From positions 1 through 64,000 of the forward strand of contig CAWUCO010000199.1 of the NCBI GenBank assembly GCA_963920705.1: DNA of 64,000 nucleotides. Reading direction: 5' to 3'. Shown in pieces: positions 1-49,719 of the stretch. The notes below the pieces were generated by a model. That model ran no database searches, was not told the DNA's origin, and saw only the letters and a program-made list of their open reading frames with translations. The position numbers and the translations under genes are program-made. Position 1 is the first letter of the stretch; every line of letters begins with the position of its first letter. The DNA comes from Odiellus spinosus. Taxonomy: Eukaryota > Arthropoda > Arachnida > Opiliones > Phalangiidae.

Positions 1-4
1 AGCT

Positions 5-32719: not shown

Positions 32720-34885
32720 CTATGGCTTCGTTCTCAAATCATTAATGGCCTGATCAAGCGCCATTTCATCAATTTCATCGGTAAATTCTTTTCTGACTTC
32801 CTTAATATTTTCTAGACAAACTTCATACTCTGATTTAAAATCCCGATCTAAGATATTTTTGGTTTCATCGCGCCAAGAAGTAAACAACATAATTTGTTCT
32901 GTATAAACGTTTTCTGGATCATTTTGCAAATTAAACCTTCGATATCGTACTATTTTAGAATGGCCACGTTTTCGAACGAACCCGGAAGAGTCCTTATGTT
33001 TTAGCCACTTACCATACGATTCGACCTCATTGTTTTTTACGTCATATACATTGGTTTGGGTATTAGTGACCGCTCTTCGAACGAGCGAAGGTTGTCACTC
33101 CAACTCATCAGGTCTATGTACATAATGATCTAAAACCCAGTGGAAAAGACCTTGTCACTGTCTTCTGGCAGCTCTTGAAGCGCCACTTGGCTTTTAAGAA
33201 TGTGTACACGGTTTTCGGGCAAATTTGTATTAATGAACGTACACGCTTTACTAGACCTTGACACAGGAATTTGTAAACAAGAACAAGCCGCCTCCTGAGC
33301 ACTTATCTCGTGCGAATTTAAAAACTTATCCGCCATAACATTCAATTTCTCTTTAACTGCACATTTTTTCTTTATTTGCTTGTTTCGCAGCTGTACGCAA
33401 GAGGTCCGACATGCCTCTTTGCGATTTTCCAATATAAGATACGATGTACATAACGCAAGCGTAGGGATCGAGAACATACTGAATATCCATATTTGCTTGC
33501 CAAAGCCCCAAAACTTCCTTATTATAGGGATTAACCCTAGTATCTTTAAGATTTGTTTCAATAGAACTGTTTTTTTTTATATCGTATGTTACGGCAGAAA
33601 TATACTCTTCTTCAGTCATGTTTGATTTCGCTAACAATTCCTCAAATGTATTAGCCCAAAGTTCCTTTTCCTTAGTTTGCAATGTATGGTACAAACATTT
33701 ACTAATTTCTTTGCATTTATTTTCTACCTCCACCGTTCCAACCACCCTTTCCTTTGGTTCGTATATTAGAGTACAAGGCATGGATGGAAAAGTAATTCCA
33801 AAGGGGCAAATTGATCTATTATTAACCTTTTTTTACACGTTGTCGTGTGTCTATGAAACTGTAGCCGTGTCAATTAATTTAAGTTTTAATCGTCATGCTC
33901 ACCAGCGCATGCAATAATCTTATCGACAAACGTTTCTACTTCTTTGACATTAGAAAAGTCGTCCTTCAATTTTGGAGCTCCTATTATCCATATAAGTCAA
34001 TGTTGGTGCGGAGAGCCCCTTTGCTGTATTTCTACTTTAAAGTAGTAATCTTGTACTATACCAAGGGGACCTAATTTTTGAAGAGCTTAAAGCAAAGCTC
34101 GGAAACGGTAGTCAAAATAACGAGCGCAAGTAACTGGGTCATCCTGAATAAGCTTCGCTTTTTCGGCGTAACTTAAACTTAAAACCTCTTGGTTTTCTAA
34201 AGTTTCTTGCTCAAAAGTTGGGCGCAATACGTTTAAAAGCTCGGGCCATTTACTTTCCGCAGCTAAAAGCGTCACAAAAAGAGTAGCTGTCCCAAGTTGT
34301 CTTATCATCGCCAGCATCTCTTTTTGCCTGTGTTGCCAATAAGACGGAGAAGATTGTAAACTTTCGAGAACTCTAAAACCATCATCCTGCTTTATAAGCG
34401 TATCAATGGCCCCCTCTGAGGCGTGATACCCGGCCGTGAAATTCGACCCGTCTATTTTTTTTTTTTTTTTTTTTACTTTTTCTCATACGCACTTGTATCG
34501 ATTGACTAATTTTGCTCGTTTCTAATTTAACCAAAGAATAAAATAACTTCGAACGGATTCTTCGCACATCGGCGATCGGCATTTCGAAGTTCCCACTTAA
34601 CGATATACCCATAGCTACTTTTGACATTGAGTTCTCTTTTTTCACCAACATAAATTCTCGGGAAAGATAATTCCTCCGAATCCTCGTCAAATAACAATTA
34701 CATTGGTTTTTGCCCTTCTCCTATGGCAAATTTAACTCGCAGAGTATCAGGTGGTAAAAAATCGGACAAAGAAACTAATAATGTGTCCCACTTTGATTGA
34801 TTAACAATATCGGGCTCATTCCATAAATCATCGCTGTCTATATCGTAATTTTTAACACCTTGATCACATTCTGGGTTAACCTGTG
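32720..34885 (-). pseudogene. Helitron Rep (HUH nuclease) half, N-terminal part
   Basis: Broken minus-strand frames. From high to low coordinates: a lead region (34,885-34,690), a helical segment (34,690-34,490), the Helitron_like_N block LAMIRQLGTATLFVTL with ESKWPEL (34,317 on), a conserved LGPLGIVQDYYFKVE string leading to the HUH metal site (RGSPHQH, near 34,000), then DPYACVMYIVSYIGKSQRGMS (about 33,470-33,410) with the tyrosines expected to cut and join DNA. A stop directly follows PHQH. The piece nearest the start is separated by the Polinton insertion and lies at 49,720-49,950. Confidence 0.85.
34880..34885 (+). repeat. 6-bp target site duplication, left copy
   Basis: CCTGTG directly before the Polinton; identical to 49,714-49,719. 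Confidence 0.95.
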
Positions 34886-35628
34886 AGTAAATAAAAAATG
34901 AGAGTTGACTATCACGGGGTGGCAGTTTTGATCATGGGTTCTATGGGGTGGTAATGTTAATTTTCCTTCGACGGACATTTCCCCGGATATTCTCCCGGCA
35001 ATTGAAAGGCGGTATAGCCGCAGACCTATGCCAGCGACACCCCGCAAAGGGGTGTGATAAGACTCCGCTGTTTCGGAAGCTCACAGCGGCAGATAAGAAA
35101 TCGTGAATATCGGGGTGGCAGTTTTGGTCTTGGGTGCTATGGAGTGGCAATGCTAATTTGGCTTCGACGGGTAAGAGCGTCGATTTAACGTCGGGTAGAG
35201 AAGAACGTTCACCCCGTGGAGAGCTGCCCTTGGTTCTACGTATAGAGGGTGTGATAAGACGCCGTAGTTTCGGAAGCTTACAACGGCAGATAAGAAATCT
35301 GGAATATCACTAGTTCCAAATGCTTATCAGCGTTCGAGTTCGGTGTTTATCTTTTGAAATAGAGCTAATAGGGAAAGAAGGCTGCTATGATTAAACGAAT
35401 TATTTATTCTTAAAGTCTTAAAACAGAGGAGAGGGCGAAAGGGTGTCATCCCGCGACGTGTGGGTAATTAACCGCGCGCGTTTTAAATTAGAATCGGTAG
35501 ACTGACGGGAAAACCGAAATATTTCACGTCGGAAATTCTTGTAGGCTTAACCGGTATTATATTTTAGGCTTATATATAAATGAAAAGTGATTGGTGATAA
35601 GTGTTTTCAAGAGGTAATGTAAACAAGC
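34886..35628 (+). repeat. Polinton left terminal inverted repeat
   Basis: Matches the complement of 48,974-49,713. By eye I saw one substitution (near 35,227) and one 3-bp length difference (near 35,593). It holds two tandem subrepeats of about 200 bp (starting near 34,915 and 35,111), each with GGGGTGGCAGTTTTG and GTTTCGGAAGCT(C/T)ACA words. Confidence 0.95.
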
Positions 35629-35633
35629 GCTAG

Positions 35634-35641
35634 TATAAAAG
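35634..35641 (+). promoter_or_regulatory. TATA box of first rightward gene
   Basis: TATAAAAG just inside the TIR, about 100 bp before the ATG at 35,735. Position predicts transcription start near 35,665. Confidence 0.6.
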
Positions 35642-35734
35642 GTCTCGACGATGAGTCTGGGTGAACATATTCGCTACGTAAGTAACCGTTTTCACACGGA
35701 GAATTAACCGTATTCCGAAAGGCTGTTAATTCTG

Positions 35735-36202
35735 ATGGCGAAGACATGTATTCTCGAAGCTAGCTTCCTGCGGGCTAATGGCGAGTACATAATAAAGGAA
35801 TTGGCGTACTACATCGTGGAAACGGGAGAGAATGGAGTCTTCTCCTTTAAACCGCCATTTCGGTACAACGAGCTCAGCTACAAAGACAGGCGTTTGAACG
35901 GATGGATTACCCGTAATATAGGAGGGATGTTTTGGTGCGACGGAGAATATAATTACAAGGACTTCGAAGATATTTTAAGGGGTCTTTTACAAAAAGCAAA
36001 CGTGTTTTGGACGAAGGGACTCGATAAGTCAATTTTCCTGTCGAGATATCTCGGTCATGACGTAGGAAATGCTGAGTCACTTGGCTGCCCTAAATTTACG
36101 AGAGAACCGATATTTGATTATTGTAAATACCACAAAAATAACGCCCAGTGTTGCTCTTTTAAAGCTTATAAATTAAATTTGTGGTTTAAAAAACAAAGTT
36201 AA
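35735..36202 (+). CDS. Polinton exonuclease-fold-like protein, 155 aa
   Basis: Uninterrupted frame from ATG 35,735. The layout (an N-terminal strand with CILEASFLRANGEYI, FKPPF, a W-rich middle, VFWTKGLDKSIFLSRYLG, GCPKF, then a C-terminal Cys/His group C-x2-H-x6-CC) matches a family I recall as recurrent in arthropod mobile DNA with an RNase H/exonuclease-like fold. The usual acidic active-site residues are not obvious, since the first strand has E where D is common. It is the first gene beside the left TIR and has its own TATA box. A role in DNA processing is inference. Confidence 0.6.
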   Translation: MAKTCILEASFLRANGEYIIKELAYYIVETGENGVFSFKPPFRYNELSYKDRRLNGWITRNIGGMFWCDGEYNYKDFEDILRGLLQKANVFWTKGLDKSIFLSRYLGHDVGNAESLGCPKFTREPIFDYCKYHKNNAQCCSFKAYKLNLWFKKQS

Positions 36203-36367
36203 GTGTTTGTATATAAATAAATAAAATTCGATTCGCACTCTTACTGATTTCTCAATTTAGTATAAAATACAAACGAACTTACTTTAAGTGTTTACCAATG
36301 ATATACTTAGAAAAACTACCCATATATTAGAGTACTTCAGTTATCGTTCGCGAACGATTTTATTTGG

Positions 36368-36375
36368 TATAAAAA
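36368..36375 (+). promoter_or_regulatory. TATA box of second rightward gene
   Basis: TATAAAAA 63 bp before ATG 36,431, spacing suited to a start near 36,398. Confidence 0.6.
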
Positions 36376-36430
36376 GGAACGGTATAGATTGGAAATATTA
36401 TTCTCTCGTTGGTCCCTTCTCATAGTAACT

Positions 36431-37281
36431 ATGGATGCTAAGAACCCCCTCCCAACCATCTGCAGTTTGTTGTATACCGCCACCCTAGGATTAATATCAC
36501 AGAACCTTGAATTAACATTCAAGGTTTTTATGATAATAATCCAAAAATATCATAAGCGCTGGCATAACGGGATCTACCCCAACGAAGCTACAGGACAAAT
36601 CAGGGTGGATCTCCCATATAACGCGAATCTGGAGAACGTGCGGACTAACGGCCTAAAAGGAAGTCAAAAATTTATATCCGTAAGATTATTTTTTAAAAAT
36701 TACTATGCTAGTTGGGTACTTTAAATTATTATTAAGTTTATTCATTAATATGTCTTTATCAGGTAAAAAAAATCGATATCCCGGTCGAAGGTGAAGCAGA
36801 GGTGGCTGACATCCTGAGTTCTCTAGGGATCGAGGTTAATATCTCCAAGCAGGGTGTTCCGATTCCCGCCTCCACCCAGTTGTCAATCCCTGCGGCGATA
36901 CCCATCCCACAACAAGAACCCATTCCGACAACGTCACAGGCTCTGGACCTCGTACAACTGTTGAAAGACAACAACGGTGTTCAAACGTCTTCCACGATCA
37001 CCCCGCAGGTGATATCTCAAATCAGGGAACCAGATGTCCCCAGTCTCGAGAATTTGATCGTTCCAGACTCTGCTCAGCCTCGCACTGGGGTTTTAGCGTC
37101 ATCGGGGACCTCAAAAATCCTCGAATCTAATCCTCGGAAAAGATCTAAATCCGCGGATAAGGTTTTGATTAAAAAGAGAGCCCGGAAATCTAAGCCTGTT
37201 ATCGAGACGGATGATTTACAGCATTTAATCAGCCTGGAACAGATCTGCCAATCGATCTTGGATGACCCCGAGGGTGATTAA
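36431..37281 (+). CDS. Polinton protein of unknown function, two exons
   Basis: I propose exon 1 36,431-36,679 and exon 2 36,763-37,281, joined in phase 0. The intron (36,680-36,762, 83 bp) starts GTAAGA and ends TTATCAG, and without it the frame stops at 36,724. The product is about 255 residues: a structured N-terminal half (HKRWHNGIYPNEATGQ), a Pro/Ser/Thr-rich middle (IPIPQQEPIPTTSQ) and a basic, nuclear-signal-like patch (NPRKRSK...KKRARKSK) near the C terminus. Its place between the exonuclease-like gene and the polymerase suggests an early, DNA-related role. A terminal-protein role is possible but unproven. I do not recognise the family. Confidence 0.6.
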
Positions 37282-37380
37282 AAAAAAAATAATAATAAAA
37301 AAAAAAAAAATAAAAAAAATAAAAAATAAAAAAATAAAAAAAAATATATATATATATGTATATTAAAATATTTTCAGTAA
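37282..37380 (+). repeat. A/T-rich simple repeat
   Basis: Runs of A broken by single T residues, then (TA)n, directly behind the stop codon; AATAAAGTT lies just downstream (37,398) as a likely polyadenylation signal. Confidence 0.9.
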
Positions 37381-37474
37381 AGAATAAACAAAATGAATAA
37401 AGTTTTCCTTTAATATCTATCTCTTCTCTCGAGTATATTCGAGAATTTCAAGTTTACTGATAAACGAGGGCTGA

Positions 37475-37484
37475 TATATAAACC
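37475..37484 (+). promoter_or_regulatory. TATA box of polymerase gene
   Basis: TATATAAACC about 75 bp before ATG 37,551. An ATG at 37,509 is followed by an in-frame stop, so it is not the start. Confidence 0.55.
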
Positions 37485-37550
37485 CACCCAGAATTTTTTG
37501 TTTCATTATGGACTACAACATCGTAAAACTAGTAAGTACTTTATAAAAAT

Positions 37551-40383
37551 ATGTTTCCCTGTGGGGTTTGCGGCTGTGAATTTAGGAGAAAAGATGTGTT
37601 AACGAGACATGTTCGCGAACAACATGAGGGGGTCAAATACACTTGTGATACATGTGGAAAACTTTTCGCGCGTAAAACACATTTAACGCGACATTCCCGG
37701 ATACATAGAAATTCTCCTGTTACCCAACCTGTAAACGACGCTTCGTCAACCGAAAACCTATCTACGTTGCCCGAGAATGGTTCCATGCCGTCCGAGGATG
37801 AACCCACACCTCTTGAAAAGGATGCAATTCGCCCTGAGGAGATTCTCGTCCCTGTCGAGAATGATTTTGCCTCCGGTGCGGAGGAAATGTTAGCCTTAGG
37901 GGATGCGATTCTAAGTGCTAGATTCACCCCACCTGATTGTCAGACGGACCTTGAACAATTTATGACCCCGCTCATCCCTAGTTTAATCAGATATTTGGAG
38001 CAACAGCTTATTAAAAGAAAGGGAATTAAATGGAATATTATAATAAGAGTCCGCTATATTAAAGTACTACCCAACGGTGATGAGATGGAGCACATCCCGT
38101 ACCTACGAAGTAGAACTCAGACTACACTCTTAGCGGATGAACTCGAAAATCAGATCAACGGGTGCGTTCAAACCATTTCTAATCAGATGCAAGAATTCCA
38201 GGAGCTAGGGAGCAATTGGGTGGTAGATAGAATTCTATACCTCCAAGTGGATGTTATCAAGTATCTACCCCTTGTCGCAGGCTCCTACATAAACACCCCC
38301 GAGGGGGTTATAGAAACAAAAAGCGTTCTCAACATAAAATCGAACGATGGGATGTGTTTTAAATGGGCCTGCTTAGCCCATCTTCATCCTGTTGAATTGA
38401 ACGCCAATCGTGTCTCCGGATATAAACAATATGAGAACGAATTAGACTGTTCGGAAATAAGCTTCCCCTTTTTACTCCACAATATGAAATTAAAAAAATT
38501 TGAAGTTAAAAACAATCTCTCGATTAACGTGTTTGCTTGGGAGGGAGGAGTCTTCCCCCGCTACGTCAGTGAACAGATAGTAAGCGAGGAAAGGGAGATT
38601 GATCTCCTGCTTCTGACTGAAAAAGATAAAAAACATTACTGCCTTATACGAAGCCTAAGTCGACTTCTGTCGCATTTTACCAACCACAACGGAAAAATAT
38701 ATATATGTAGAAGATGCCTACATAGGTATTCCGGGGCAAACGCCAAAAAAAATCACGCCGAACATAAAAAACATTGCTCCATCCACGCACCCCAACGAAT
38801 TGAGATGCCCCTCAAAAAGCCTGTTCTATATTTTGAAAAATTCGAGTGGATGCAGAAGGTAAATTATTTTCTAAATTCTAGTCGGTTTCCCTATCTTACA
38901 CGCTATTCGTTTAGTGTCCGTTCGTTATTTACGCCGACTTTGAGAGCATTTTAAACCGTTATCAAACTTGTTCAAATAACTCGACTCTTTCCTCCACCAC
39001 AAAACTCGCCGAGCATGTCGCCTGTGGGTTCAGCTACGTAGTAATCGGACAAGATGGTAAGTCTCTGGCTTCTTGACGTCGACCTAGTTTCTAACCAATT
39101 TCACCAGGTAAGCCCCGGCTACCTGTCACGTATCGTGGGATAGACGCTGTCGAGGTGTTTCTTGAGAGTTTACTAATGGAGGAGGAAAATATATTGGAGA
39201 TTCTACAAAAGAACATTCCAATGGACTTAACCCCGAATGAATTAGAAGCCAGTAGAAAATCAACACACTGCTATATATGTACTGGAATTTTGACGACAGA
39301 GGATTACGGGGTGAACGACCATTGCCATCTAACAGATGAGTTTTAAAATTATTTAGCTTATTAGTTCTGTATTTCATTATCCTTCATTTTAAGTAGTTTT
39401 CGGGGTCGCGCTCATAACAGCTGTAACCTCAAGATGCGGATGGACAAAAAAATACCTGTTGTTCTTCACAATATGTCCAAGTAAATATCTCCAATCCCAT
39501 TATAAGTACTGATTATTTTTATAATCTTCACCCTCTCTTTAAAGCTACGATTCGCATCTGATCCTACAGAAGATGGGTATTTTCAAGGAGCAGAATATAG
39601 AGGTCATCCCAAATAACTCCGAACGATATATCTGCATCGGATTTAGCTGTCTACAATTTATAGATTCAATGAGATTTATGCCAGCCTCGCTCGACACCCT
39701 GGTTCAAAATTTGGCTCAGGACGGGATCAACAAATTTAGCATCCTCGCTGCATCGTATAACCCTGAGCAAGTATGTTTAGCTCTCAAGAAGCTGTCATAC
39801 CCCTATGACTATATGGACTCGATGGCACGGTTTGAGGAGACTCAATTACCACCTAAAGAAGCTTTTTATAATATTCTAACTGACGAGCATATATCCGATG
39901 AAAATTACCAACACACTCGGGATGTTTGGGAGAAATTTGAAATAAAAAATCTAGGAGATCTTCACGACACATACGTTCAAATTGATACGCTACAGTTGGC
40001 GTGTGTTTTCGAGGAATTTAGAACCATGTGTTTGGATTATTATCGCTTAGACCCTGCACATTCATACACAGGACCAGGATTAGCCTGGGAAGCCGCCCTC
40101 CTGAAGACAGGTGTAAAATTAGATTTGCTGTTGGATCCGGATATACATCTCTTTATCGGTAGTTTCATTTATATTTATTTTTAATACTTGACATTAATGT
40201 TTTCCTGTATTGTAGAACGTGGGATTAGAGGTGGTGTATCTCTGATAAGCAATCGATACGCCGAAGCTAATAACAAATATCTCCCCGATCACGACGAATC
40301 CAAACCTAGCAACTATATCGTATATTTAGACATAAACAATTTATATGGTAAATATAATAATTGGAAATCTTCAATAATTTCAT

Positions 40384-40431
<48 letters not shown>

Positions 40432-41889
40432 AAGGCAAAGTTATGAAGGACTACCTCCCGATGAACAACTTCGGGTGGATCGACCCCGATAGTGATCTTC
40501 TGGCCTACACACTGAAGTATATTTTGGATCTGCCAGACGATTCACCATATGGATTCATCCTAGAGGTTGATTTGGACTACCCGGAGGAGCTACACAACAC
40601 ACATAATTGTTTCCCTCTCGCACCGGAAACGAGGAAAATAACGATCGACATGTTTTCCCCGACCTACAAATTGCTAATGACGAAGAACGGCCTTCCCTTA
40701 AAAGACACACTACCTAAACTCCTACCGACCTTAAATAACAAGTCGAACTACGTTACACATTATAGGAATCTTAAATATTATATCTCTCAGGGTTTGAAAT
40801 TAAAAAAAGTACATAGAGTACTATCGTTCGGTCAAGGACCTTGGCTTAGTCCATACATTGATTTCAACACGGAAAAGAGGAAGATCGCCACTACAGAATT
40901 TCAACGGGATTTTTTTAAGCTGATGAACAACAGGTATAAAGCGCACGGAATTAATTCAATTATTTTTATTAATCTCTGTAATACATTAGCGTTTTCGGTA
41001 AAACGATGGAGAATTTGCGAAATAGAATTGATTTCACCCTCGTGCAGACAGCTGAAAAAGCAATCAAAAAAGCATCGTCGCCCGCCTTTCAAAAGTTCAT
41101 TGTGTACCATAATGAATTGGTCGGGATTCAACGAGCTAAATCATTTCTTTATCTAAATAGACCCATATTCACGGGCTTCTCGATTTTAGATCTCGCCAAG
41201 TTATTTCTGTATAAATTCCACTATGACTTTATCAAGGAGAAATACGGCGGTAACGCGGTACTACAGTTTACTGATACGGGTATTAGTTTATCTTTCACAC
41301 TATTTGCCGCATACTAACTTTTTCATTCATAGATAGCTTAATGTACGATATAAAAACCGAGGACGTGTACGCCGACTTCAAAAAGCATGGCGATCGGTTT
41401 GATTTCTCGGGCTACCCAAAATCGCACAACCTTTTCAGCGACACCAATAAGAAGGTTCTGGGTAAAATGAAAGACGAGATGAATGGTGGGATTATAAAAG
41501 GTGATTTTTGTGGATAAGTTTCTGTATTAAATATGTGCTAATGTATTTTTCTATCTCTATTAGAATTCGTCGGACTTCGACCGAAACTTTATTCCATTTT
41601 ATCTGAGGTGGGGGAGAAGAAGACTGCAAAGGGGATCTGTCGCCGTGTTGTGAAACGTTCTATCCACCACTCAGATTACCGTGAATGCTTATTCGGTGAG
41701 GCTGAGACATCCTGCGTTATGAAAAGGATTGTCAGCGACAAGCACAACCTATACACAGTTAGCCAAAGAAAGAAGGCGCTATCCGCCTGCGATAACAAGA
41801 AATACATTCTTCCTGGGGGGATACGAACCCTATCATACGGTCATCGTTTAATAAAAAAATTTAACGACCGAGTTAGGGAAATTAAATAA
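37551..41889 (+). CDS. Polinton protein-primed DNA polymerase B, ten exons
   Basis: Proposed exons: 37,551-38,858; 38,915-39,056; 39,108-39,339; 39,397-39,480; 39,545-40,158; 40,216-40,347; 40,435-40,933; 40,990-41,279; 41,333-41,500; 41,564-41,889. All nine introns are GT-AG and 51-87 bp; exon lengths sum to 3,795 nt (1,264 codons plus stop) with phases consistent throughout. Domains in order: two C2H2 fingers (C4, C7, H20, H25; C32, C35, H48, H52), a long N-terminal region, exonuclease I motif (YADFES, exon 2), an endonuclease VII-like Cys/His segment (CYIC, DHCH, then HNSCN across exons 3-4), exonuclease III ([10 protein letters not shown]), motif A (DINNLY, exon 6), motif B across exons 7-8 and motif C, whose DTDS is split by the intron between exons 8 and 9. 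It replicates the linear element using a protein primer. No inactivating change is seen. Confidence 0.9.
40388..40426 (+). repeat. T homopolymer in polymerase intron 6
   Basis: About 39 consecutive T residues form the polypyrimidine part of the intron that interrupts the region just after polymerase motif A. Confidence 0.95.
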
Positions 41890-41953
41890 ATAAAAATAAT
41901 AAAGTTGGAATAAAAAATAAGTATTGAAGATTGTTGATATGAAATTAAATAAA
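41890..41953. terminator. Convergent 3' ends of polymerase and protease genes
   Basis: Only 64 bp separate the two stop codons. AATAAA-type signals occur on the plus strand (41,886-41,900) and TTTATT words (minus-strand signals) near 41,960, so the transcripts probably overlap. Confidence 0.55.
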
Positions 41954-42415
41954 TTATAATTTTATTGAATATCTTTTGTACATAAATTCTTTTATCATAT
42001 TGTCGTTAGAAATTGTGTTCTTAGAAAACCTGGATATAATGTTGTACATTTTAACACCGCGACATCTATTGAGACTGAAATATATCGAATACCCCCCACA
42101 GGTCCAACTCTTATTCCCTTGTAACTGCAAAGAATTATACGAAATCATTCGACTATTTTTCTCCGCGAATTCATTAAATTTAAACACGTCGGGAGGGTTT
42201 CCATAACTTTCAAAAAACTCTAAGTTTTTCGAGCTAGTAAAATACATAAGACACCAATGTTCTCCGTTCTCGCTAGATGATGCGGTATTTACGATAAAAA
42301 GCGATGGGAATGATTGCACGGTTTTTGGTAGAGTATTTGCCGCGAACACACCACGAAAAATATCCCTGGTGTATTTATCGTTCTCCAATATGTTCTTTAT
42401 TTGCGTAGTGTCCAT
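41954..42415 (-). CDS. Polinton adenain-like maturation protease, 153 aa
   Basis: Start chosen at ATG 42,415 (MDTTQI), which comes one base after the stop of the capsid gene; the frame is open further upstream but there it overlaps the capsid gene. The triad layout of adenovirus protease (C5 peptidase family) is visible: His53 in GEHWCL, acidic Glu69 in FFESYG, and Cys106 in SWTCGGYS, with Gln99 positioned for the oxyanion hole. The protein would cut capsid precursor proteins during virion maturation. Last gene of the leftward group. No defect is seen. Confidence 0.88.
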   Translation of the reverse strand: MDTTQIKNILENDKYTRDIFRGVFAANTLPKTVQSFPSLFIVNTASSSENGEHWCLMYFTSSKNLEFFESYGNPPDVFKFNEFAEKNSRMISYNSLQLQGNKSWTCGGYSIYFSLNRCRGVKMYNIISRFSKNTISNDNMIKEFMYKRYSIKL

Positions 42416-42416
42416 T

Positions 42417-43742
42417 CTAATCAACGACGATAACGGTTCTGTTCTTATCAATTTCAATGAGCGACTGAAATTCAGCGTAAACAATTACAGCCACAGTCTC
42501 CGTAAGAGGGGCGGCGAATTTTAATTCAAGTCTTAAATTCCCGTTTTTAACCAAATGGAAATGGGAAGCGTTTGAAGTCAAATCCACTGTGAGATCGAAG
42601 CAATAAAGGCAGTTACCGCCGGCAAAATCATCCCGACTTATTTGATTACCCTCGTCAAGTTGGAACTGCCCGGTCATTAGAGTTAGATTATTATACGCCT
42701 GGATAAAACTATTCTGACCGAAATTTGGAGTAAGTGGTTTGTGGGGGACGCTACTCCCGTCGATAGACAGCCCAATATGATTTAAATTAAAATTTTGAAA
42801 GTTAAACGGACATAACTTTAGTTCCCCTAAGTAGGCGCTTTGCGAGACTAGGCCGATAACAATTTTCTTGGGGGTTGAGCCTGTGAAAAGGTGATCTTGA
42901 ACTACGCTCATATTTCCCGTAGGTATAGAGAAAGACGTACACTCTGTTCTATTAATTGGATATTTCGCTCTAGCTACCTGCATCACTTTGGCGTGTGCGA
43001 GACCGATTTCGGGGATAAGCTTCATTTTTCTGATATACAGCGCGGCGGACTTAATTTCAACGCGACCCGTTACATCACCGTGTAGACAGAAATCGAAGTT
43101 CGGCTTCCCGAAAACGAATTTCAAATCTACTAGATTTAGTAGATATCGCGGTTGTTGACATAAATCCAGATGCAAACCACCGATCATATCAATTACACCA
43201 CTCTGGGCAAATTTAGCTCTTTTTTGAAACCCTTCGTTAGCGTTAAAATTATCGAAAAATTCCGCTGTATCCCGATAATATAGAGAGCTCGTCAGATGGC
43301 TATTTTTAGCCGGATCCCCGTATGTTAACAGCGTTTGAATCATACTTTTATATGGATAATTTTGAGCCGAGGGTGTAACGGACTTCTCGTTTAAATACAG
43401 GTGAACCTCGGGGAACATACTATGTAGAAATAAATTGGTTGGAGCCAGATTATCCATCAGGGTCGCTACAGTACCGTCAGCGGCAAAAACCGTAGCTAGC
43501 GGGTGGGAGCCGCTGCTTTTCTTAATTTCCACTTGAACGTGCAGCAGAGTTTTTGATAGATCGACGTAAGTCTCGGAGTTCCCGTTGATGTGGAATGTTA
43601 AAGATGAATTATTCGAAATACTTGATATTGGATTATGCTCAACCCATTCTCCTGATATGACACTCGTCTGGGTCATAGGTACTTCGAATAGGTTGAGTTC
43701 GGAATTTACGCAGCTATTCGAGTGGGGGTGTAGCAAAGCCAT
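42417..43742 (-). CDS. Polinton major capsid protein, 441 aa
   Basis: Uninterrupted frame from ATG 43,742, two bases after the stop of the pX-like gene. It is beta-rich with few long helices, as expected of a double jelly-roll hexon-type protein, and begins with an ELNLFEVPMTQTSV segment that I associate with Polinton capsid proteins. Size, the position between pX-like and protease genes, and co-occurrence with a penton-like protein and packaging ATPase support the call. It would form the capsid shell. A structure prediction would settle the fold. Confidence 0.85.
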   Translation of the reverse strand: MALLHPHSNSCVNSELNLFEVPMTQTSVISGEWVEHNPISSISNNSSLTFHINGNSETYVDLSKTLLHVQVEIKKSSGSHPLATVFAADGTVATLMDNLAPTNLFLHSMFPEVHLYLNEKSVTPSAQNYPYKSMIQTLLTYGDPAKNSHLTSSLYYRDTAEFFDNFNANEGFQKRAKFAQSGVIDMIGGLHLDLCQQPRYLLNLVDLKFVFGKPNFDFCLHGDVTGRVEIKSAALYIRKMKLIPEIGLAHAKVMQVARAKYPINRTECTSFSIPTGNMSVVQDHLFTGSTPKKIVIGLVSQSAYLGELKLCPFNFQNFNLNHIGLSIDGSSVPHKPLTPNFGQNSFIQAYNNLTLMTGQFQLDEGNQISRDDFAGGNCLYCFDLTVDLTSNASHFHLVKNGNLRLELKFAAPLTETVAVIVYAEFQSLIEIDKNRTVIVVD

Positions 43743-43744
43743 TT

Positions 43745-44185
43745 CTATCTTGAAAAAATATCCGAAGGAGAGGGGAATCGTCGAGGTGCTCTCTTCTTCC
43801 TAGCCTTCCTTAATGTGGTCGGGGATTTTTTGGCACGCTTCTTTTTAAGTCCCGAACCTATCATATCTTGGATGGCTTCGGAGGCGGCGGAAATAGTTTC
43901 TTTCCCTGCCATTTTCGAGCGGGATCTTAACGACGCTTTCACAGGTATACCACTCGCGACATCACCCACGACCTTCCCTCCTGTATTTAATAATTTCTTC
44001 CCCAAGTACGATAAACCCTTTTTAAGTAACGGCATAGCGCTGCGAAAGGCGGACGCTAAAATGTTACCCAAACCATAACCCCTTTGTACGCTTATGCCCT
44101 GATATACAGGAATCGAACCGTATCCGGCCTGATTTAAAAATAAATTTTCATATTCCTCCACGGTATGGTATACCGGCGTCCTCAT
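43745..44185 (-). CDS. Polinton pX/pVI-like minor virion protein, 146 aa
   Basis: Begins at ATG 44,185. The N-terminal part is Gly/Tyr-rich (GYGLGNILASAFRSAMP), followed by an amphipathic, lysine-rich stretch and a strongly basic tail (KKKRAKK, RKARKKRAPRR). Adenovirus pX and pVI have this mix of a membrane-active or cleavage region and DNA-binding tail. GYGLGN could be a protease target, but that is inference. It probably condenses DNA or cements the capsid. Next to the capsid gene, 2 bp apart. Confidence 0.7.
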   Translation of the reverse strand: MRTPVYHTVEEYENLFLNQAGYGSIPVYQGISVQRGYGLGNILASAFRSAMPLLKKGLSYLGKKLLNTGGKVVGDVASGIPVKASLRSRSKMAGKETISAASEAIQDMIGSGLKKKRAKKSPTTLRKARKKRAPRRFPSPSDIFSR

Positions 44186-44244
44186 GATGTTGACAGTACG
44201 TTTATCTCTATACGAGTGACCGCTGATAGAGGGGTGTCTTACTA

Positions 44245-45012
44245 TTATAGCCGAAACCAGGATCTCAGAGGTCTGAAATGCAGAGTCGCGTGAATCTTAC
44301 CACGCTCGAATTGAACAGGGTTTCCGAGGTCATCCATAATATTTATTTCGATTGTCTGTATTTGGTGTGACGCCACGGGAATATAGTGCGGTCGTGTAAA
44401 TATAGCGTCTATCGTCTCGCCGTCCTGTCCCCTAACACTAATTAATCTAAGAAGTGGAACGTTACGATCCCCCACGATTGTTTTCTCAGCGACGTCTGAG
44501 TATACGAACAGGGAATGTAAGGACGCGTTCATGTCAATCGCATACGGTGCCCTTGCAGAAGATTCTATCCTTATAACCTCCCCCGTATCTTCGCGGGTGA
44601 AGCCCAACATATTAGCAATGTGGGTGGGTATGTCCAATTTAACCCCATCTTTTAGCTCGACGGAAACACGTTTACTGAGCACCTCGTAACTGAACGTCAC
44701 CCCGTTCCCACTACTAAGTTCAATCATCTCCAGAAGTTCGTGAACCGTGTTATAATTTCCAGGTGGAATCTGAATTAACCGCTGAAATTTGAATCCTGGG
44801 TCCCCGGGTTTACCTTCAGTCCAACTACGTATGAAGTACTCTTGCTTTACGTTGTTCCAACTATGGGGGTAGGATAACTCTGAAAGGCCTACTTCGTAGG
44901 GTCCCGAAAATTTCACTATTTCCGGGAGATAGGTTCGGAATTTGCTGACGGTATTATTGGGGAAGTAATTCATCGATGAATCTGAGGGGAGCGTGATATA
45001 GAAACTGCTCAT
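44245..45012 (-). CDS. Polinton minor capsid (penton-like) protein, 255 aa
   Basis: ATG 45,012 overlaps the TGA of the integrase gene by 4 bp (ATGA). The N terminus FYITLPSDSSMNYFPNNTVS is characteristic of the Polinton minor capsid protein, and the whole protein is beta-rich, consistent with a single jelly roll. It would form the pentameric vertices. No stop or frameshift is seen. Confidence 0.82.
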   Translation of the reverse strand: MSSFYITLPSDSSMNYFPNNTVSKFRTYLPEIVKFSGPYEVGLSELSYPHSWNNVKQEYFIRSWTEGKPGDPGFKFQRLIQIPPGNYNTVHELLEMIELSSGNGVTFSYEVLSKRVSVELKDGVKLDIPTHIANMLGFTREDTGEVIRIESSARAPYAIDMNASLHSLFVYSDVAEKTIVGDRNVPLLRLISVRGQDGETIDAIFTRPHYIPVASHQIQTIEINIMDDLGNPVQFERGKIHATLHFRPLRSWFRL

Positions 45013-46079
45013 TGTAGATCAACTTCTCTAACCCAATCGTTAAAACGAGAATTATAGCCCAGGAACTTTACAAAAAGGTCAACCGTGTTGTCGGGATTTC
45101 TTCTTCTCTTTATTACTTTTTCGATCTTAAACGCGAATGTGGCTAGGTCTTTGTAAACCTTTAGAACCTGCTCGGAGTAAAAAGTTCCTAAAACTGGCTC
45201 AGACTTTAAATCCTCGAGCATATATACCGGCGGTTTCCGCGGTAGTCTTTTAACCACCCTGAACAGCTCCTCCGAAAAGTTTGGTTGGTACCCCTTTTCG
45301 AAAAGCCGCTTACTCCTACTTATTCGAACAATATCCCCCAACTCCAGCGTGTAGGGAATTGGCATAGTCGGTCTTTGATCTCCGTATAGTATTTCCCAAA
45401 CTCTTTTGGTGTTTTGTGACGTCACTTCTACCGGTTTGCATTTGATAGCGGAATGGTATGAATTGTTGTAGCTAGAAACCAAATCTTGAAGGACGTCTGT
45501 GTATTTTAATGTACCCTTACCCGTAAAATATCGATACATTTTTGTTTGTATTGTACGATTCCATCTCTCGATCACGGCACACTTAATTTCCGAGTGATGG
45601 GTATAGAATTTTATTCCCCGTTGTTTCAACTCTTTTTGCACTGCTTGGGCTATAAACTCGGATCCATGATCTGTATTCAAAGAGGCGGGGCTTCTCCCCC
45701 GATCGAATATTTGGACCAGCGCCTTGGCGATCGTCTCACCCCTCTTGTTATTGACGGCTTCGATGAACCCCATTTTACTAAAAACGTCAATACAGGATAA
45801 AAGATAGCGTTTCCCCTCGTTATGTTTGGAAATACGTTGCACGTCGATTAAATCGGCCTGCCAGAGGGCGTCTACACCACTAGATATAGTTTTATTCCGT
45901 TGAAACCGTATTCTTGCGGGCTTATGTAAACCGTATGCATCTTGGTGGGCCAGATATTCTCTGACGTTTTTTATCGTAACATCAAGCCCCCTTTCTCGGG
46001 CCGAGCGATATAGCCCTAAAACACTGGCGTACCCTCCAGGATCTGCGACATTATAATAAATACCGTCTAATTTATCCAT
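45009..46079 (-). CDS. Polinton retroviral-type integrase with chromodomain, 356 aa
   Basis: Start ATG 46,079 overlaps the end of the membrane protein gene by 8 bp. The rve-type core has Asp76 (WQADLIDV), Asp137 (NTDHGSEF) and Glu171 (VIERWNRT), with 33 residues between the last two. No HHCC finger is seen at the N terminus. A chromodomain-like module (FKIEKVIKRRRN...VKFLGYNSRFNDWV) occupies about the last 50 residues and may guide target choice through histone marks. It inserts the linear DNA and makes the 6-bp duplication seen here. The catalytic residues are intact. Confidence 0.92.
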   Translation of the reverse strand: MDKLDGIYYNVADPGGYASVLGLYRSARERGLDVTIKNVREYLAHQDAYGLHKPARIRFQRNKTISSGVDALWQADLIDVQRISKHNEGKRYLLSCIDVFSKMGFIEAVNNKRGETIAKALVQIFDRGRSPASLNTDHGSEFIAQAVQKELKQRGIKFYTHHSEIKCAVIERWNRTIQTKMYRYFTGKGTLKYTDVLQDLVSSYNNSYHSAIKCKPVEVTSQNTKRVWEILYGDQRPTMPIPYTLELGDIVRISRSKRLFEKGYQPNFSEELFRVVKRLPRKPPVYMLEDLKSEPVLGTFYSEQVLKVYKDLATFAFKIEKVIKRRRNPDNTVDLFVKFLGYNSRFNDWVREVDLQ

Positions 46080-46266
46080 TTAAAGTGAAATTGTTATTAC
46101 CGGTCTCGCGAGGGTGTGAGAAGTACTCAAATAAAAAGTCGGATACTTGTATTATAATTATTACTAATAATATTAATAGAGCTGTAAGAGCTTTTGGGGA
46201 TTTTCTAAAAAAGTTGAGAAGTTGTGTTAACGTAGAAGCGGTCAAAACTTCCGCGCAACCTTCCAT
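46072..46266 (-). CDS. Polinton single-span membrane protein, 64 aa
   Basis: The frame is open from 46,347, but I choose ATG 46,266 because it gives a compact protein (MEGCAEVL start) and avoids overlap with the upstream gene. Residues about 31-50 form a hydrophobic helix (ALTALLILLVIIIIQV). Small membrane proteins at this position are common in Polintons and adintoviruses; the role is unknown, possibly capsid or membrane attachment. Confidence 0.6.
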   Translation of the reverse strand: MEGCAEVLTASTLTQLLNFFRKSPKALTALLILLVIIIIQVSDFLFEYFSHPRETGNNNFTLNG

Positions 46267-46331
46267 GTTAGTGTCTACAATTGAAATAAATGATATCGGT
46301 GGAGGGTAAAATGTTTTATTTGCTAAAAATA

Positions 46332-46925
46332 TTATACATAAACCCAAGTCTTCGATCTTGATGGTGGAGTGTTTAAAATAATCGAATTAATAAACGATTT
46401 TCTCGCCGGGTTTTTTATGATCTTTTTTGGGACATTATATTTATTTAACATCTTGTAAAACATCTCGAAACCTTCAGGGTTCGTTACACCGCTGCTTTTC
46501 CTAACTCCATCGTAAATTAAATCAACTACATTCGTTCCAGTTACAGGATGCCCGGAAATTTCCAGTTCACCCAGTTTGGACCATGTTAAATCCTTTTGCC
46601 TCTCGATCCAGTTGTATAGCGTTATCCCGTCATTAACCAGGCTACTGGGTAATCCAGTAGCAATCTCAGCAATCCAGGATGTCTTTTTCTCTGACGGCTT
46701 TTCCGTCGCTGTCTTCTCCACGGTTTTTCGATTGGAATTTAGATGTCTTTGGAGAGTTTGGTTATATAGCGCTAATTTGTCTGACCCTGAAATTGTGTTA
46801 TTCTCTAGGATATTTTTCATATCCCTATCAAGACTAGGTGCTTCGAGCTCCTCCCTTTTTTCTTCCGAAGAGTTTTTTAACCGCTTAAGAACATCCTCCG
46901 AAACCAATAACATTTTTCTAGCCAT
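46332..46925 (-). CDS. Polinton virion-type protein of unknown function, 197 aa
   Basis: Starts at ATG 46,925, with an AT-rich TATATAAATATA box 15-28 bp upstream. The N-terminal third is charged and helical (LKRLKNSSEEKREELEAPSLD), followed by a more ordered region ending in NPARKSFINSIIL. I recall similar proteins next to the ATPase or integrase in other Polintons, but without assigned function. The frame is intact. Confidence 0.6.
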   Translation of the reverse strand: MARKMLLVSEDVLKRLKNSSEEKREELEAPSLDRDMKNILENNTISGSDKLALYNQTLQRHLNSNRKTVEKTATEKPSEKKTSWIAEIATGLPSSLVNDGITLYNWIERQKDLTWSKLGELEISGHPVTGTNVVDLIYDGVRKSSGVTNPEGFEMFYKMLNKYNVPKKIIKNPARKSFINSIILNTPPSRSKTWVYV

Positions 46926-46956
46926 TACTGTGTTTTAATTATATTTATATATTTCG

Positions 46957-47304
46957 CTAGATGGCCCTGCTTATAGCCGCACCTGTTACAGATCCTAATA
47001 CCGAGAGCAGGGGTGCCAATAACAGAGGTAAAAAACCACCTTTTTGTACTAGAATTTTTTTCTTTTTAGAAACTGGAATATTTTCTGAAATACTTCGAAT
47101 AAATTCGCGATGTTTAGCTAGCCGTTTCTTCTCTGCGACTGATAATTTGACATTCCCGCTTAGTATATTTAAACAACATTCCGTCAAAGCTAGAATCTCA
47201 TCCCTTTTGGCTAGCTGTATTATGGCTCGACGCTGTTTGGTGTTACATACGCATAAAAACTTTAAAAACTCGATATTGTGCTTCAATTTTTCTGATTTAT
47301 TCAT
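46957..47304 (-). CDS. Polinton small basic/hydrophobic protein, 115 aa
   Basis: ATG 47,304, just behind the ATPase stop at 47,308. The N-terminal 75 residues are basic and helical with several Cys. The C terminus reads KKKKILVQKGGF followed by a hydrophobic LPLLLAPLLSVLG stretch. This basic-then-hydrophobic ending recurs in adintovirus and Polinton late proteins and suggests a membrane-active virion component. The function is inferred. Confidence 0.6.
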   Translation of the reverse strand: MNKSEKLKHNIEFLKFLCVCNTKQRRAIIQLAKRDEILALTECCLNILSGNVKLSVAEKKRLAKHREFIRSISENIPVSKKKKILVQKGGFLPLLLAPLLSVLGSVTGAAISRAI

Positions 47305-47307
47305 GTC

Positions 47308-48002
47308 TCATTTAGGTAGAAACACAGCCGCTTCCTCTCCTGGTATGATACCGGTCCGCAGTCTATGTTCATCTGAGGTATTTGGTTTCAGATCGATGAA
47401 TAAATACCCATATTTTTTAGCTACAGCCTGTTGGAAGGCGTCTATAACGTATTTAGTATTTGTCGGCGATATTTGCTTGGCTAGGGTATAAATACTCGAT
47501 TTGTCTCTAGGTGTTGCAAAGAGACATATATAGTGGGAGTTTAAATTCAGGGTTCTTATTTCTTTCCCCGGGTAGTATAAGTTTTGCATTAAAATTAAAA
47601 CACTCGTATTTCGATGATGTGAGCCACGTATGAATAAATTTGTAATGCTTTTATTATTGGCTACTTCACAAAGCAGATCGTCGATAATAACTAAATTTCT
47701 AGTCCCAGAGTTCAAATCATTATCATCGAGCAAACCCTCGTGAAATTCTACCGAAGGAACCTTTTCATGGATCCAATTAAATAACTTAGGTTGAAATTCT
47801 GTATAGCAATAAATTATTCTTTGTGGACAGGGATTTATAGTTACTTCCTTATGCGCTATAAGATTCGCTACGAAATAGCTTTTCCCGCTCTGAGTACCTG
47901 AAATTAGATAAATTGTACGTTTCTATGCGGTTGGTTGTAAATTTATTTGTCCATACTTCCTGCGATCAGACCGGTGAATGGGTGACTCAGACTTAGGTCC
48001 AT
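47308..48002 (-). CDS. Polinton packaging ATPase, two exons
   Basis: Proposed exon 1 48,002-47,957 and exon 2 47,897-47,308 (211 residues). The intron (47,956-47,898, 59 bp) begins GTATGG and ends TTTCAG. Unspliced, the frame stops after 19 codons. Splicing assembles the Walker A loop, with STQSGKS right after the junction; Walker B is NLVIIDDLL. This places it in the FtsK/HerA-type (A32-like) ATPases that pump DNA into capsids. A HPFTG start before the P-loop is typical of the Polinton group. The intron immediately before the P-loop is unusual. No defect is seen. Confidence 0.87.
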
Positions 48003-48036
48003 GATTGTAATGAGACCATCTCCGTAGGTACGATAG

Positions 48037-48044
48037 GTTTTATA
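48037..48044 (-). promoter_or_regulatory. TATA box of ATPase gene
   Basis: TATAAAAC on the minus strand, about 35-42 bp before ATG 48,002. Confidence 0.5.
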
Positions 48045-48093
48045 TTAAAATTAAAAATTAGAGACTCGGTTCGAAAATGAAGGATTGATTTTA

Positions 48094-48813
48094 TTAGGGT
48101 GTAACATCTTCAGTTTTCAATAGTAATTTTTTGGAGATACAGGCAATATTACAAAGTATATATTCGCAGAATTGTTCACCCAGAAATGTATTCGATACGA
48201 ATTCATCCGTGATCTCGGAGTAGCTCATCTTACCCATGGCCGTTGCGTAGTTCATTTCCACCCGGGTATTCCAGTCGTACATCACGCAGTCGTGTTTTGT
48301 TTGGGATGGGTGGTCGGTTTCACACCCGTAGCACATTGCGGTGATTGTTTCCGATAACTGCCCGAGTACGCTTTTTTTAATTTTATCATAGACCCGTTTG
48401 ACTTCTTCCAGGAAGGTTATAACCTCGTCGAATTTCTCCAAGAAAGATCGCCATAGGAGTTTTGAAATGGCAAACCCAACTCTTGTGGGGTATAGTTCGC
48501 CGTAATTTGCCCCGCTACCAGGTCGCATCTCTCGTATGTTGAGAATTCTGATGTCTCGAAATTCGGTTAACTCAACTCGCTTCGTTTCAGACCCCTCGAA
48601 GAACCAAGCAGGCGGGGCAATTTTCTGATCCTCTAGGAATGACGTGATATCCGCTCGAGCTCGGTATAGCTCCAGGAATTCTGCCTCGGTCAACGTTATT
48701 AGGGAACTTCCATTCAGACATCCTAGTTGAATTTCGCAGTTCGGCGTTACCCCAATTCCTTTGAGGGGTGAGATTGGAAATATTTTGGCGGTGAGCCTAA
48801 ATAGAAAATACCG
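48094..48813 (-). CDS. Polinton protein of unknown function, about 200-240 aa
   Basis: The frame is open from 48,813 to the stop at 48,094 and protein-like throughout (SPLKGIGVTPNCEIQL, then LTEAEFLELY, PPAWFFEGSETKRVE, and a Cys-rich C-terminal part), but has no ATG near its start. An acceptor-like TTCTATTTAG lies just inside (48,806-48,797), so a short first exon may be spliced on; a TATATAAAG box sits at 48,848-48,856. Another ATG (MSEWKF) at about 48,721 is in a different frame. Similar proteins are, from memory, frequent in arthropod Polintons; the function is unknown. First leftward gene beside the right TIR. Confidence 0.6.
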   Translation of the reverse strand, partial: RYFLFRLTAKIFPISPLKGIGVTPNCEIQLGCLNGSSLITLTEAEFLELYRARADITSFLEDQKIAPPAWFFEGSETKRVELTEFRDIRILNIREMRPGSGANYGELYPTRVGFAISKLLWRSFLEKFDEVITFLEEVKRVYDKIKKSVLGQLSETITAMCYGCETDHPSQTKHDCVMYDWNTRVEMNYATAMGKMSYSEITDEFVSNTFLGEQFCEYILCNIACISKKLLLKTEDVTP

Positions 48814-48847
48814 TTATTCCAAGTCCGGCTATCGTCTAATAAGCTAC

Positions 48848-48856
48848 TTTATATAC
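48848..48856 (-). promoter_or_regulatory. TATA box of first leftward gene
   Basis: TATATAAAG on the minus strand, about 120 bp inside the right TIR boundary; predicts a start near 48,825. Confidence 0.55.
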
Positions 48857-48973
48857 ATACATTTTCAATCCTTTCGCAGTCGATGAGAGAATAAGTAAAA
48901 ATTTAATTGTATATTTCTTTTATACTACCGGTTGTTTACTTTTCAATTTAAAAAGCCCCTCCTACACGTAACT

Positions 48974-49713
48974 GCTTGTTTACATTACCTCTTGAAAACA
49001 CTTATCACTCACTTTTCATTTATATATAAGCCTAAAATATAATACCGGTTAAGCCTACAAGAATTTCCGACGTGAAATATTTCGGTTTTCCCGTCAGTCT
49101 ACCGATTCTAATTTAAAACGCGCGCGGTTAATTACCCACACGTCGCGGGATGACACCCTTTCGCCCTCTCCTCTGTTTTAAGACTTTAAGAATAAATAAT
49201 TCGTTTAATCATAGCAGCCTTCTTTCCCTATTAGCTCTATTTCAAAAGATAAACACCGAACTCGAACGCTGATAAGCATTTGGAACTAGTGATATTCCAG
49301 ATTTCTTATCTGCCGTTGTAAGCTTCCGAAACTACGGCGTCTTATCACACCCTCTATACGTAGAACCAAGGGTAGCTCTCCACGGGGTGAACGTTCTTCT
49401 CTACCCGACGTTAAATCGACGCTCTTACCCGTCGAAGCCAAATTAGCATTGCCACTCCATAGCACCCAAGACCAAAACTGCCACCCCGATATTCACGATT
49501 TCTTATCTGCCGCTGTGAGCTTCCGAAACAGCGGAGTCTTATCACACCCCTTTGCGGGGTGTCGCTGGCATAGGTCTGCGGCTATACCGCCTTTCAATTG
49601 CCGGGAGAATATCCGGGGAAATGTCCGTCGAAGGAAAATTAACATTACCACCCCATAGAACCCATGATCAAAACTGCCACCCCGTGATAGTCAACTCTCA
49701 TTTTTTATTTACT
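48974..49713 (-). repeat. Polinton right terminal inverted repeat
   Basis: Complement of 34,886-35,628 with only two visible differences, so the insertion is young. Confidence 0.95.
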
Positions 49714-49719
49714 CCTGTG
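49714..49719 (+). repeat. 6-bp target site duplication, right copy
   Basis: CCTGTG, identical to 34,880-34,885. Confidence 0.95.

What the first reader, a model, noticed from the sequence alone, without database searches (positions are those of the whole stretch)
34880..49719. Young, apparently complete Polinton/adintovirus-like element with exact ends
Both ends are fixed by a perfect 6-bp duplication (CCTGTG). The 740-bp TIRs differ by about one substitution and one 3-bp indel, and every main ORF is open, including polymerase, integrase, ATPase, protease and three capsid-type proteins. An intact copy with all structural genes may still be mobile or able to make virions.
Basis: partly seen in the sequence, partly recalled or inferred. 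Interest (0 to 1): 0.9.

Follow-up and report, generated by a model that had tools for sequence, protein, structure and literature searches.

The report
Complete Polinton with intron-rich polymerase gene
This is a complete, probably recently inserted virus-like giant transposon (a Polinton, or adintovirus-like provirus) whose DNA-copying gene appears to be cut into ten exons by nine small introns, an arrangement not seen at these sites in the distant relatives sampled and not reported for intact vertebrate elements.

Summary
The ends are as described: a perfect 6-bp duplication (CCTGTG) and TIRs of 743/740 bp that differ by one substitution and one 3-bp indel. The element is 34886-49713 (14,828 bp).

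"Every main ORF is open" is not literally true: the polymerase lies in ten pieces in different frames and the ATPase in two. The breaks look like introns, not decay. All nine polB breaks are GT..AG, 51-87 nt, in consistent phase. Exons searched apart match 81 of the 120 listed PolB relatives with all ten, 80 of them in order; seven of nine junctions have a median gap of one residue, the split codon. In 21 related DNA loci, 0 of 132 testable sites hold a 40-150-nt insert and 100 have exactly the 3 nt of the split codon. The ATPase and two terminal genes also look spliced. Nine genes, including the major capsid protein (double jelly-roll fold), appear intronless.

A vertebrate survey reports intact Mavericks as intronless (PMC8097293, passages). 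This is a known kind of element in an unusual intron-bearing variant. Splicing, activity and copy number are untested; the genome search did not complete.

The parts
34880..34885 (.). left target-site duplication CCTGTG
49714..49719 (.). right target-site duplication CCTGTG
34886..35628 (+). left TIR (743 bp), begins AGTAAATA
48974..49713 (-). right TIR (740 bp)
35634..35641 (+). TATAAAAG, 5 bp inside the left TIR, 101 bp before the first gene; candidate promoter
   Evidence: motif match only
35735..36202 (+). ORF of 155 aa, unknown function, single exon
   Evidence: no Pfam match
36431..37281 (+). ORF36k: two exons (36431-36679, 36763-37281), 255 aa in all, unknown; intron 36680-36762 GT..AG, 83 nt
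   Evidence: no homologue at hand, so this intron is inferred from frame and splice sites only
37551..41889 (+). DNA polymerase B gene, ten exons: 37551-38858, 38915-39056, 39108-39339, 39397-39480, 39545-40158, 40216-40347, 40435-40933, 40990-41279, 41333-41500, 41564-41889; CDS 3795 nt including stop
38859..38914 (+). polB intron 1, 56 nt, phase 0
39057..39107 (+). polB intron 2, 51 nt, phase 1
39340..39396 (+). polB intron 3, 57 nt, phase 2 (weak donor GTTTTA)
39481..39544 (+). polB intron 4, 64 nt, phase 2
40159..40215 (+). polB intron 5, 57 nt, phase 1
40348..40434 (+). polB intron 6, 87 nt, phase 1; contains a 39-T run (40388-40426)
40934..40989 (+). polB intron 7, 56 nt, phase 2
41280..41332 (+). 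polB intron 8, 53 nt, phase 1; interrupts the catalytic TDTDS motif inside the second Asp codon
41501..41563 (+). polB intron 9, 63 nt, phase 1 (weak donor GTGATT)
41954..42415 (-). protease candidate (adenain-like by recalled motif); similar ORFs in L006, L019, L020 in the same contig as a PolB
42417..43742 (-). major capsid protein, 441 aa, F54H12.2-like family, double jelly-roll fold
43745..44185 (-). 146-aa basic protein, core/pVI-like by recall
   Evidence: no Pfam match
44245..45012 (-). 255-aa penton (minor capsid) candidate by position
   Evidence: no significant match
45009..46079 (-). integrase: rve core plus C-terminal chromodomain-like part
46072..46347 (-). 91-aa ORF with a hydrophobic segment
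46332..46925 (-). 197-aa ORF, unknown
46957..47304 (-). 115-aa ORF with hydrophobic C terminus; similar stretches next to the ATPase match in L010 and L020
47308..48002 (-). packaging ATPase, two exons (48002-47957, 47897-47308); intron 47898-47956, 59 nt, splits the Walker A loop
48094..48862 (-). PC4-like gene (Pfam PC4 below cut-off); intron 48797-48860 would split the ATG; weakest of the intron calls
48917..48924 (-). TATAAAAG, 62 bp before the PC4-like start; candidate promoter
   Evidence: motif match only

Best explanation
A structurally complete Polinton/Maverick of the adintovirus type, inserted recently (by integrase, leaving a 6-bp duplication) among older transposons in an animal genome. 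Shown from sequence: exact ends, near-identical TIRs, an integrase, a double jelly-roll capsid protein, and a polB gene whose ten in-phase segments, each free of stops, tile full-length PolB relatives. Inferred: RNA polymerase II transcribes the outer genes from TATA promoters just inside the TIRs and upstream of each gene; the host spliceosome removes the introns to give polymerase, ATPase and two proteins of unknown role; the polymerase copies the linear element from its TIR ends by protein priming; the packed, partly overlapping, intronless block of eight ORFs between polB and the ATPase (protease, capsid proteins, integrase and small ORFs) supplies virion and integration functions. The introns were probably gained in this lineage after it split from the relatives sampled, and would make the element dependent on nuclear splicing.
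For: Ends and TIRs. Nine of nine polB breaks are GT..AG in consistent phase, total CDS 3795 nt divisible by 3, 0 stops in exons. A random interval of the element meets the same splice-site and frame conditions 4.2% of the time. Exons searched apart against the 120 PolBs listed of 242 found: 81 match all ten, 80 of 81 in order; at junctions E3/E4 to E9/E10, 79-81 of 81 have gaps within -1..3 residues (median 1); E1/E2 and E2/E3 are looser (30 and 54 of 81; medians 6 and 2). Nine of nine introns would shift the frame or add a stop if retained. Of 90 residues invariant in 24 PolBs that I picked from the 120, 84 are kept, 3 differ, 3 are unmapped. DNA of 21 relatives: 0 of 132 testable intron sites hold a 40-150-nt insert and 100 have exactly 3 nt; 120 of 132 are spanned by one ORF. 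MCP family and fold. Integrase.
Against: No RNA evidence of splicing. Two donors (GTTTTA, GTGATT) are weak. The introns of ORF36k and the PC4-like gene have no homologue support. No close PolB relative was found: exon 1 had 12 hits, two of them to zinc fingers only, the rest 28-37% identical, so the timing of intron gain is loose. The 21 comparison loci are distant and come from metagenomes. Nine of 132 sites fall outside -9..24 nt, most by overlapping or misplaced matches; one, L019 site 6, has an apparent gap of 158 nt, and L019 has stops near that site and about 128 extra nt with a frame change inside the exon-7 region, so L019 may have decay or an intron of its own. The genome could not be searched, so copy number, empty sites and mobility are unknown. 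Activity of the proteins is untested.
Confidence: 0.83

Rival explanations
1. The polymerase is dead: frameshifts, stops and small insertions broke it, and the element is a non-autonomous copy moved by another element's enzymes.
For: No ORF over 467 aa in the polB region; a 39-T run looks like an insertion. A second polB-like region in the window (2495-4956) also lies in several frames; I did not work out whether by decay or otherwise.
Against: All nine breaks are GT..AG intervals of 51-87 nt with the right phase, and at seven of nine the homology abuts to within the split codon; by-chance rate 0.042 each. The TIRs are near-identical and the capsid, integrase and protease frames are open.
Confidence: 0.06
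2. Introns are ordinary in polB of arthropod or other invertebrate Polintons and merely under-reported, so the element is an ordinary member of its group.
For: Several insect PolB homologues are gene models with isoform labels, which suggests exons. The library lacks the founding papers. L019 may carry an insert of its own elsewhere in polB.
Against: 0 of 132 testable sites in 21 relatives carries a 40-150-nt insert, but those loci are distant and not known to be arthropod. A vertebrate survey found intact Mavericks intronless and says this agrees with the 2006 description (PMC8097293, passages).
Confidence: 0.35
3. The polymerase was captured back from a host-domesticated, intron-bearing copy, so the element is a chimera of a host gene and a Polinton.
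For: Introns are concentrated in polB (9 of 12) and none was seen in the eight-ORF block between polB and the ATPase.
Against: Three other genes also appear to carry introns; polB sits facing the capsid genes, as in vertebrate Mavericks; all ten exons match Polinton-type PolB.
Confidence: 0.08

Closest known systems
Polinton/Maverick self-synthesizing transposons (intact vertebrate Mavericks, PMC8097293, passages)
   Same: Long TIRs, 6-bp TSD, PolB, integrase, packaging ATPase, MCP, protease; modules on opposite strands facing the centre; length within the reported 12,723-24,620 bp.
   Different: Those intact elements have intronless ORFs; here polB has nine introns and three more genes look spliced. 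The ATPase here lies on the capsid-gene strand, not with polB.
Adintoviruses (as defined in PMC11071296, passages)
   Different: That paper's one mention of introns concerns giant viruses. Two C2H2 zinc fingers stand before the OTU-like part; C2H2 fingers occur in 3 of 24 PolB relatives scanned.
Maverick-derived genes linked with bracovirus loci (PMC2646287, passages); Cotesia sesamiae bracovirus protein R9XLG5
   Same: R9XLG5 is the best hit of the MCP model in the viral library (E 8e-33, 34% identity, TM only 0.38). That it is one of the Maverick-derived genes is my inference.
   Different: The array in the paper lacks terminal repeats; this element has TIRs and a TSD.

Membership tests
Polinton/Maverick | 6-bp target-site duplication | tested here: met
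Polinton/Maverick | long terminal inverted repeats | tested here: met
   743/740 bp
Polinton/Maverick | protein-primed family B polymerase | tested here: met
   all ten exons match 81 of 120 listed PolBs; 4 of 24 PolBs scanned score DNA_pol_B_2; protein priming itself not testable
Polinton/Maverick | retroviral-type integrase | tested here: met
   PF00665 E 8.7e-14; solved integrases E 1.4e-5
Polinton/Maverick | packaging ATPase | tested here: met
   matches ORFs beside PolB in L007, L010, L020; Pfam Pox_A32 only below cut-off
Polinton/Maverick | adenovirus-type cysteine protease | tested here: inconclusive
   similar ORFs in L006, L019, L020; no useful Pfam or PDB match; catalytic motif recalled
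Polinton/Maverick | double jelly-roll major capsid protein | tested here: met
   pLDDT 81.7; top PDB rows PBCV-1 and Sputnik MCPs (E about 1e-15 to 1e-16, TM to query about 0.55-0.65), mavirus MCP from rank 27
Polinton/Maverick | penton (single jelly-roll) minor capsid protein | tested here: inconclusive
   candidate by position; no significant Pfam match, no relative in viral contigs; fold not predicted
Adintovirus | OTU-like domain at the N terminus of PolB | tested here: inconclusive
   [not shown]
Adintovirus | integrase with C-terminal chromodomain | tested here: inconclusive
   Chromo E 0.005 and Tudor-knot E 0.0035, both below Pfam cut-offs
Intact vertebrate Mavericks | intronless ORFs | tested here: not met
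   nine polB introns; a reported trait of those elements, not the definition of Polintons

The most novel reading that the evidence does not exclude
A virus-like DNA transposon lineage has taken on a full set of spliceosomal introns in its replication and terminal genes while the central block of capsid, protease and integrase genes stayed intronless. That would mean long residence as a germline nuclear element and two gene classes expressed in different ways: spliced outer genes with their own TATA promoters, and an unspliced, overlapping capsid-gene block.
Probability: 0.45. Interest if true: 0.68.

Novelty: new variant of a known kind. Interest (0 to 1): 0.52.

Why it matters
The 2021 survey states that Maverick particles had not been observed (abstract). 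An intact copy whose key enzyme needs host splicing would tie its expression to the nucleus, give a simple RNA test of activity (spliced polB reads), and be a tractable case of intron gain in a DNA mobile element. It also warns that scans for long ORFs can wrongly score such elements as dead.

Tried and rejected
Decayed polymerase: my first reading, dropped after reading the break points and the exon tests. Retroposon insertion at the T39 run: dropped, it lies inside intron 6. Introner-type alike introns: best pair score 18 against a mean best score of 18.7 in 30 shuffles. Relatives in viral contigs by MCP, polB exon 7, integrase and penton: none confirmed. PDB sequence search for MCP and protease: nothing useful. 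PHROGs: at E 0.001 only transposase families for the integrase. The 'in-frame stop' column printed is a dummy and was not used; one search replaced it. polB exons against the rest of the window: no hit at E 1e-3, so the second polB could not be compared exon by exon. My notebook says more than was shown: that the second polB's breaks are decay because the ORF pieces lie close together. The spacings are 14, -76, 115, 15 and 3 nt, but stop-to-stop pieces can run into introns, so this shows nothing and I dropped the contrast. Intron concentration: 0 introns in 5754 nt of CDS against 12 in 5904 nt, nominal 0.0003, but the split is post hoc and nine introns share one gene. Literature: one search was too loose (20 of 2,344 papers listed, none of the 20 naming Polintons). 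In one search no fold is excluded by absence from the list.
Full report
Check of the observation. The two ends are exact. CCTGTG stands at 34880-34885 and 49714-49719. Inside it, TIRs of 743 and 740 bp match except for one substitution and one 3-bp indel. The element proper is 34886-49713, 14,828 bp; the interval 34880-49719 has 40.5% GC against 36-37% on either side. It sits among other transposons: a Helitron piece on the left (Helitron_like_N, 34090-34482) and a reverse transcriptase piece on the right (50426-50878; RVT_1 E 0.0012, below cut-off).

The polymerase. The ORF list shows no polymerase-sized frame: the longest piece is 467 aa. Reading the break points showed donor and acceptor sites that restore the frame. 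With the boundaries fixed there are ten exons and nine introns of 51-87 nt (median 57), all GT..AG, with phases 0, 1, 2, 2, 1, 1, 2, 1, 1, no stop inside any exon, and 3795 coding nt. The exons were compared separately with 120 PolB proteins, the best-listed of 242 found through two partial relatives. Of these, 81 matched all ten exons, 80 of the 81 in order. At junctions E3/E4 to E9/E10 the median gap is one residue, the split codon, with 79-81 of 81 within -1..3. The first two junctions are looser (30 and 54 of 81; medians 6 and 2). A random interval of such a length within the element shows GT..AG with a matching frame, within 3 nt at each end, 4.2% of the time (200,000 draws), so nine of nine is not chance if the junctions are treated as independent. 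Each intron, if kept, would shift the frame or add a stop (9 of 9). Of 90 residues invariant in 24 PolBs that I picked from the 120, 84 are kept, 3 differ and 3 are unmapped, two of these in split codons by eye.

Relatives' DNA. DNA for 21 related loci was found, 2 in viral contigs and 19 in prokaryote genome records, presumably mis-binned. Of 132 testable intron sites, 100 had a gap of exactly 3 nt, 123 lay within -9..24 nt, and none lay in 40-150 nt. 120 of 132 were spanned by one open frame; the 12 that were not lie in seven loci (L003, L004, L015, L017, L019, L020, L021). Against the reading: L019 site 6 has an apparent gap of 158 nt. A second match places most of that surplus, about 128 nt with a frame change, inside the exon-7 region, and there are stops near the site. 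L019 may therefore be decayed or have an intron of its own elsewhere.

Other spliced genes. The ATPase starts with a short exon (48002-47957), and a 59-nt intron splits its Walker A loop. Of three relatives checked, two have such a loop in one frame (L010, L020); in L007 my pattern found none. The 36.4-kb gene (two exons) and the PC4-like gene (start codon split) have plausible introns but no homologue to prove them. The 12 introns are not alike. Nine genes show no sign of introns, judged by intact frames only. TATA-like sites lie 62-101 bp before four outer start codons; this is a motif match chosen after the fact, and the scan listed 41 such matches on both strands, many overlapping.

Capsid and integrase. 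The MCP belongs to the F54H12.2-like family: 244 homologues, of which 120 are listed; the best are 76, 74 and 63% identical and the others compared 48% or less. In a tree of the window and those 120, the window and the best three form a clade with support 1.0, within a group of 24 that includes spider sequences (support 0.93; midpoint rooting). The host is therefore possibly an arachnid, but this is weak. The predicted fold (pLDDT 81.7) matches double jelly-roll capsid proteins: PBCV-1 and Sputnik lead, mavirus appears from rank 27. The integrase has the rve core and weak chromodomain-like similarity below the Pfam cut-offs.

What is known. A survey of vertebrate Mavericks reports 134 intact elements with intronless ORFs, TIRs and 6-bp duplications, and says the lack of introns agrees with the 2006 description (PMC8097293, passages). 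The 2006 paper and the 2021 adintovirus paper are not held. In ten library searches (one search was uninformative) I saw no title or abstract start about spliceosomal introns in a Polinton polB. I saw passages of eleven of the listed or cited papers and a term count of zero for introns in one more (PMC4028283); the others I saw as listings only. One describes group I introns in protist polinton-like viruses (PMC12220804, passages), and one giant-virus genes in a protist genome that mostly lack introns (PMC11244446, passages). The library is open-access only, so this is not proof of novelty.

Age. One substitution in 740 sites is 0.14% divergence. With a recalled rate near 3e-9 per site per generation this is of the order of 0.2 million generations, with a wide error; assembly collapse of the TIRs would make it look younger.

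How it most likely works. Inferred: outer genes are transcribed in the nucleus and spliced; the polymerase copies the linear element from its ends; the integrase inserts it with a 6-bp duplication; the packed block between polB and the ATPase, whose ORFs overlap or lie within 59 nt of each other, makes the virion proteins. None of these steps is shown here. Copy number and mobility could not be tested because the genome search did not complete.

Noticed in passing
2495-4956 (+): A second polymerase region of the DNA_pol_B_2 type lying in several frames; decay or introns not worked out; probably an older Polinton or linear-plasmid remnant.
   Followed up: partly
40388-40426: A run of 39 T in polB intron 6, an extreme polypyrimidine tract or an expansion; sensitive to assembly error.
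   Followed up: partly
37280-37344: A 65-bp A-rich tract directly after the stop codon of the two-exon 36.4-kb gene, which looks like a poly(A) remnant although the gene keeps an intron.
   Followed up: no
34915-35308 and the mirror in the right TIR: An imperfect (about 70%) tandem duplication of about 198 bp inside each TIR.
   Followed up: no
[not shown]
   Followed up: partly
8241-9926 and 11193-12922: An inverted pair, 97% identical, containing DDE_Tnp_4 transposon sequence.
   Followed up: no
L003-L021: Adintovirus-like polymerase genes sit in contigs filed under bacterial and archaeal genomes, presumably binning errors.
   Followed up: partly
L019:9914-10439: The polB of this relative has stops and about 128 extra nt with a frame change in the exon-6/exon-7 region: decay or a different intron.
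   Followed up: partly
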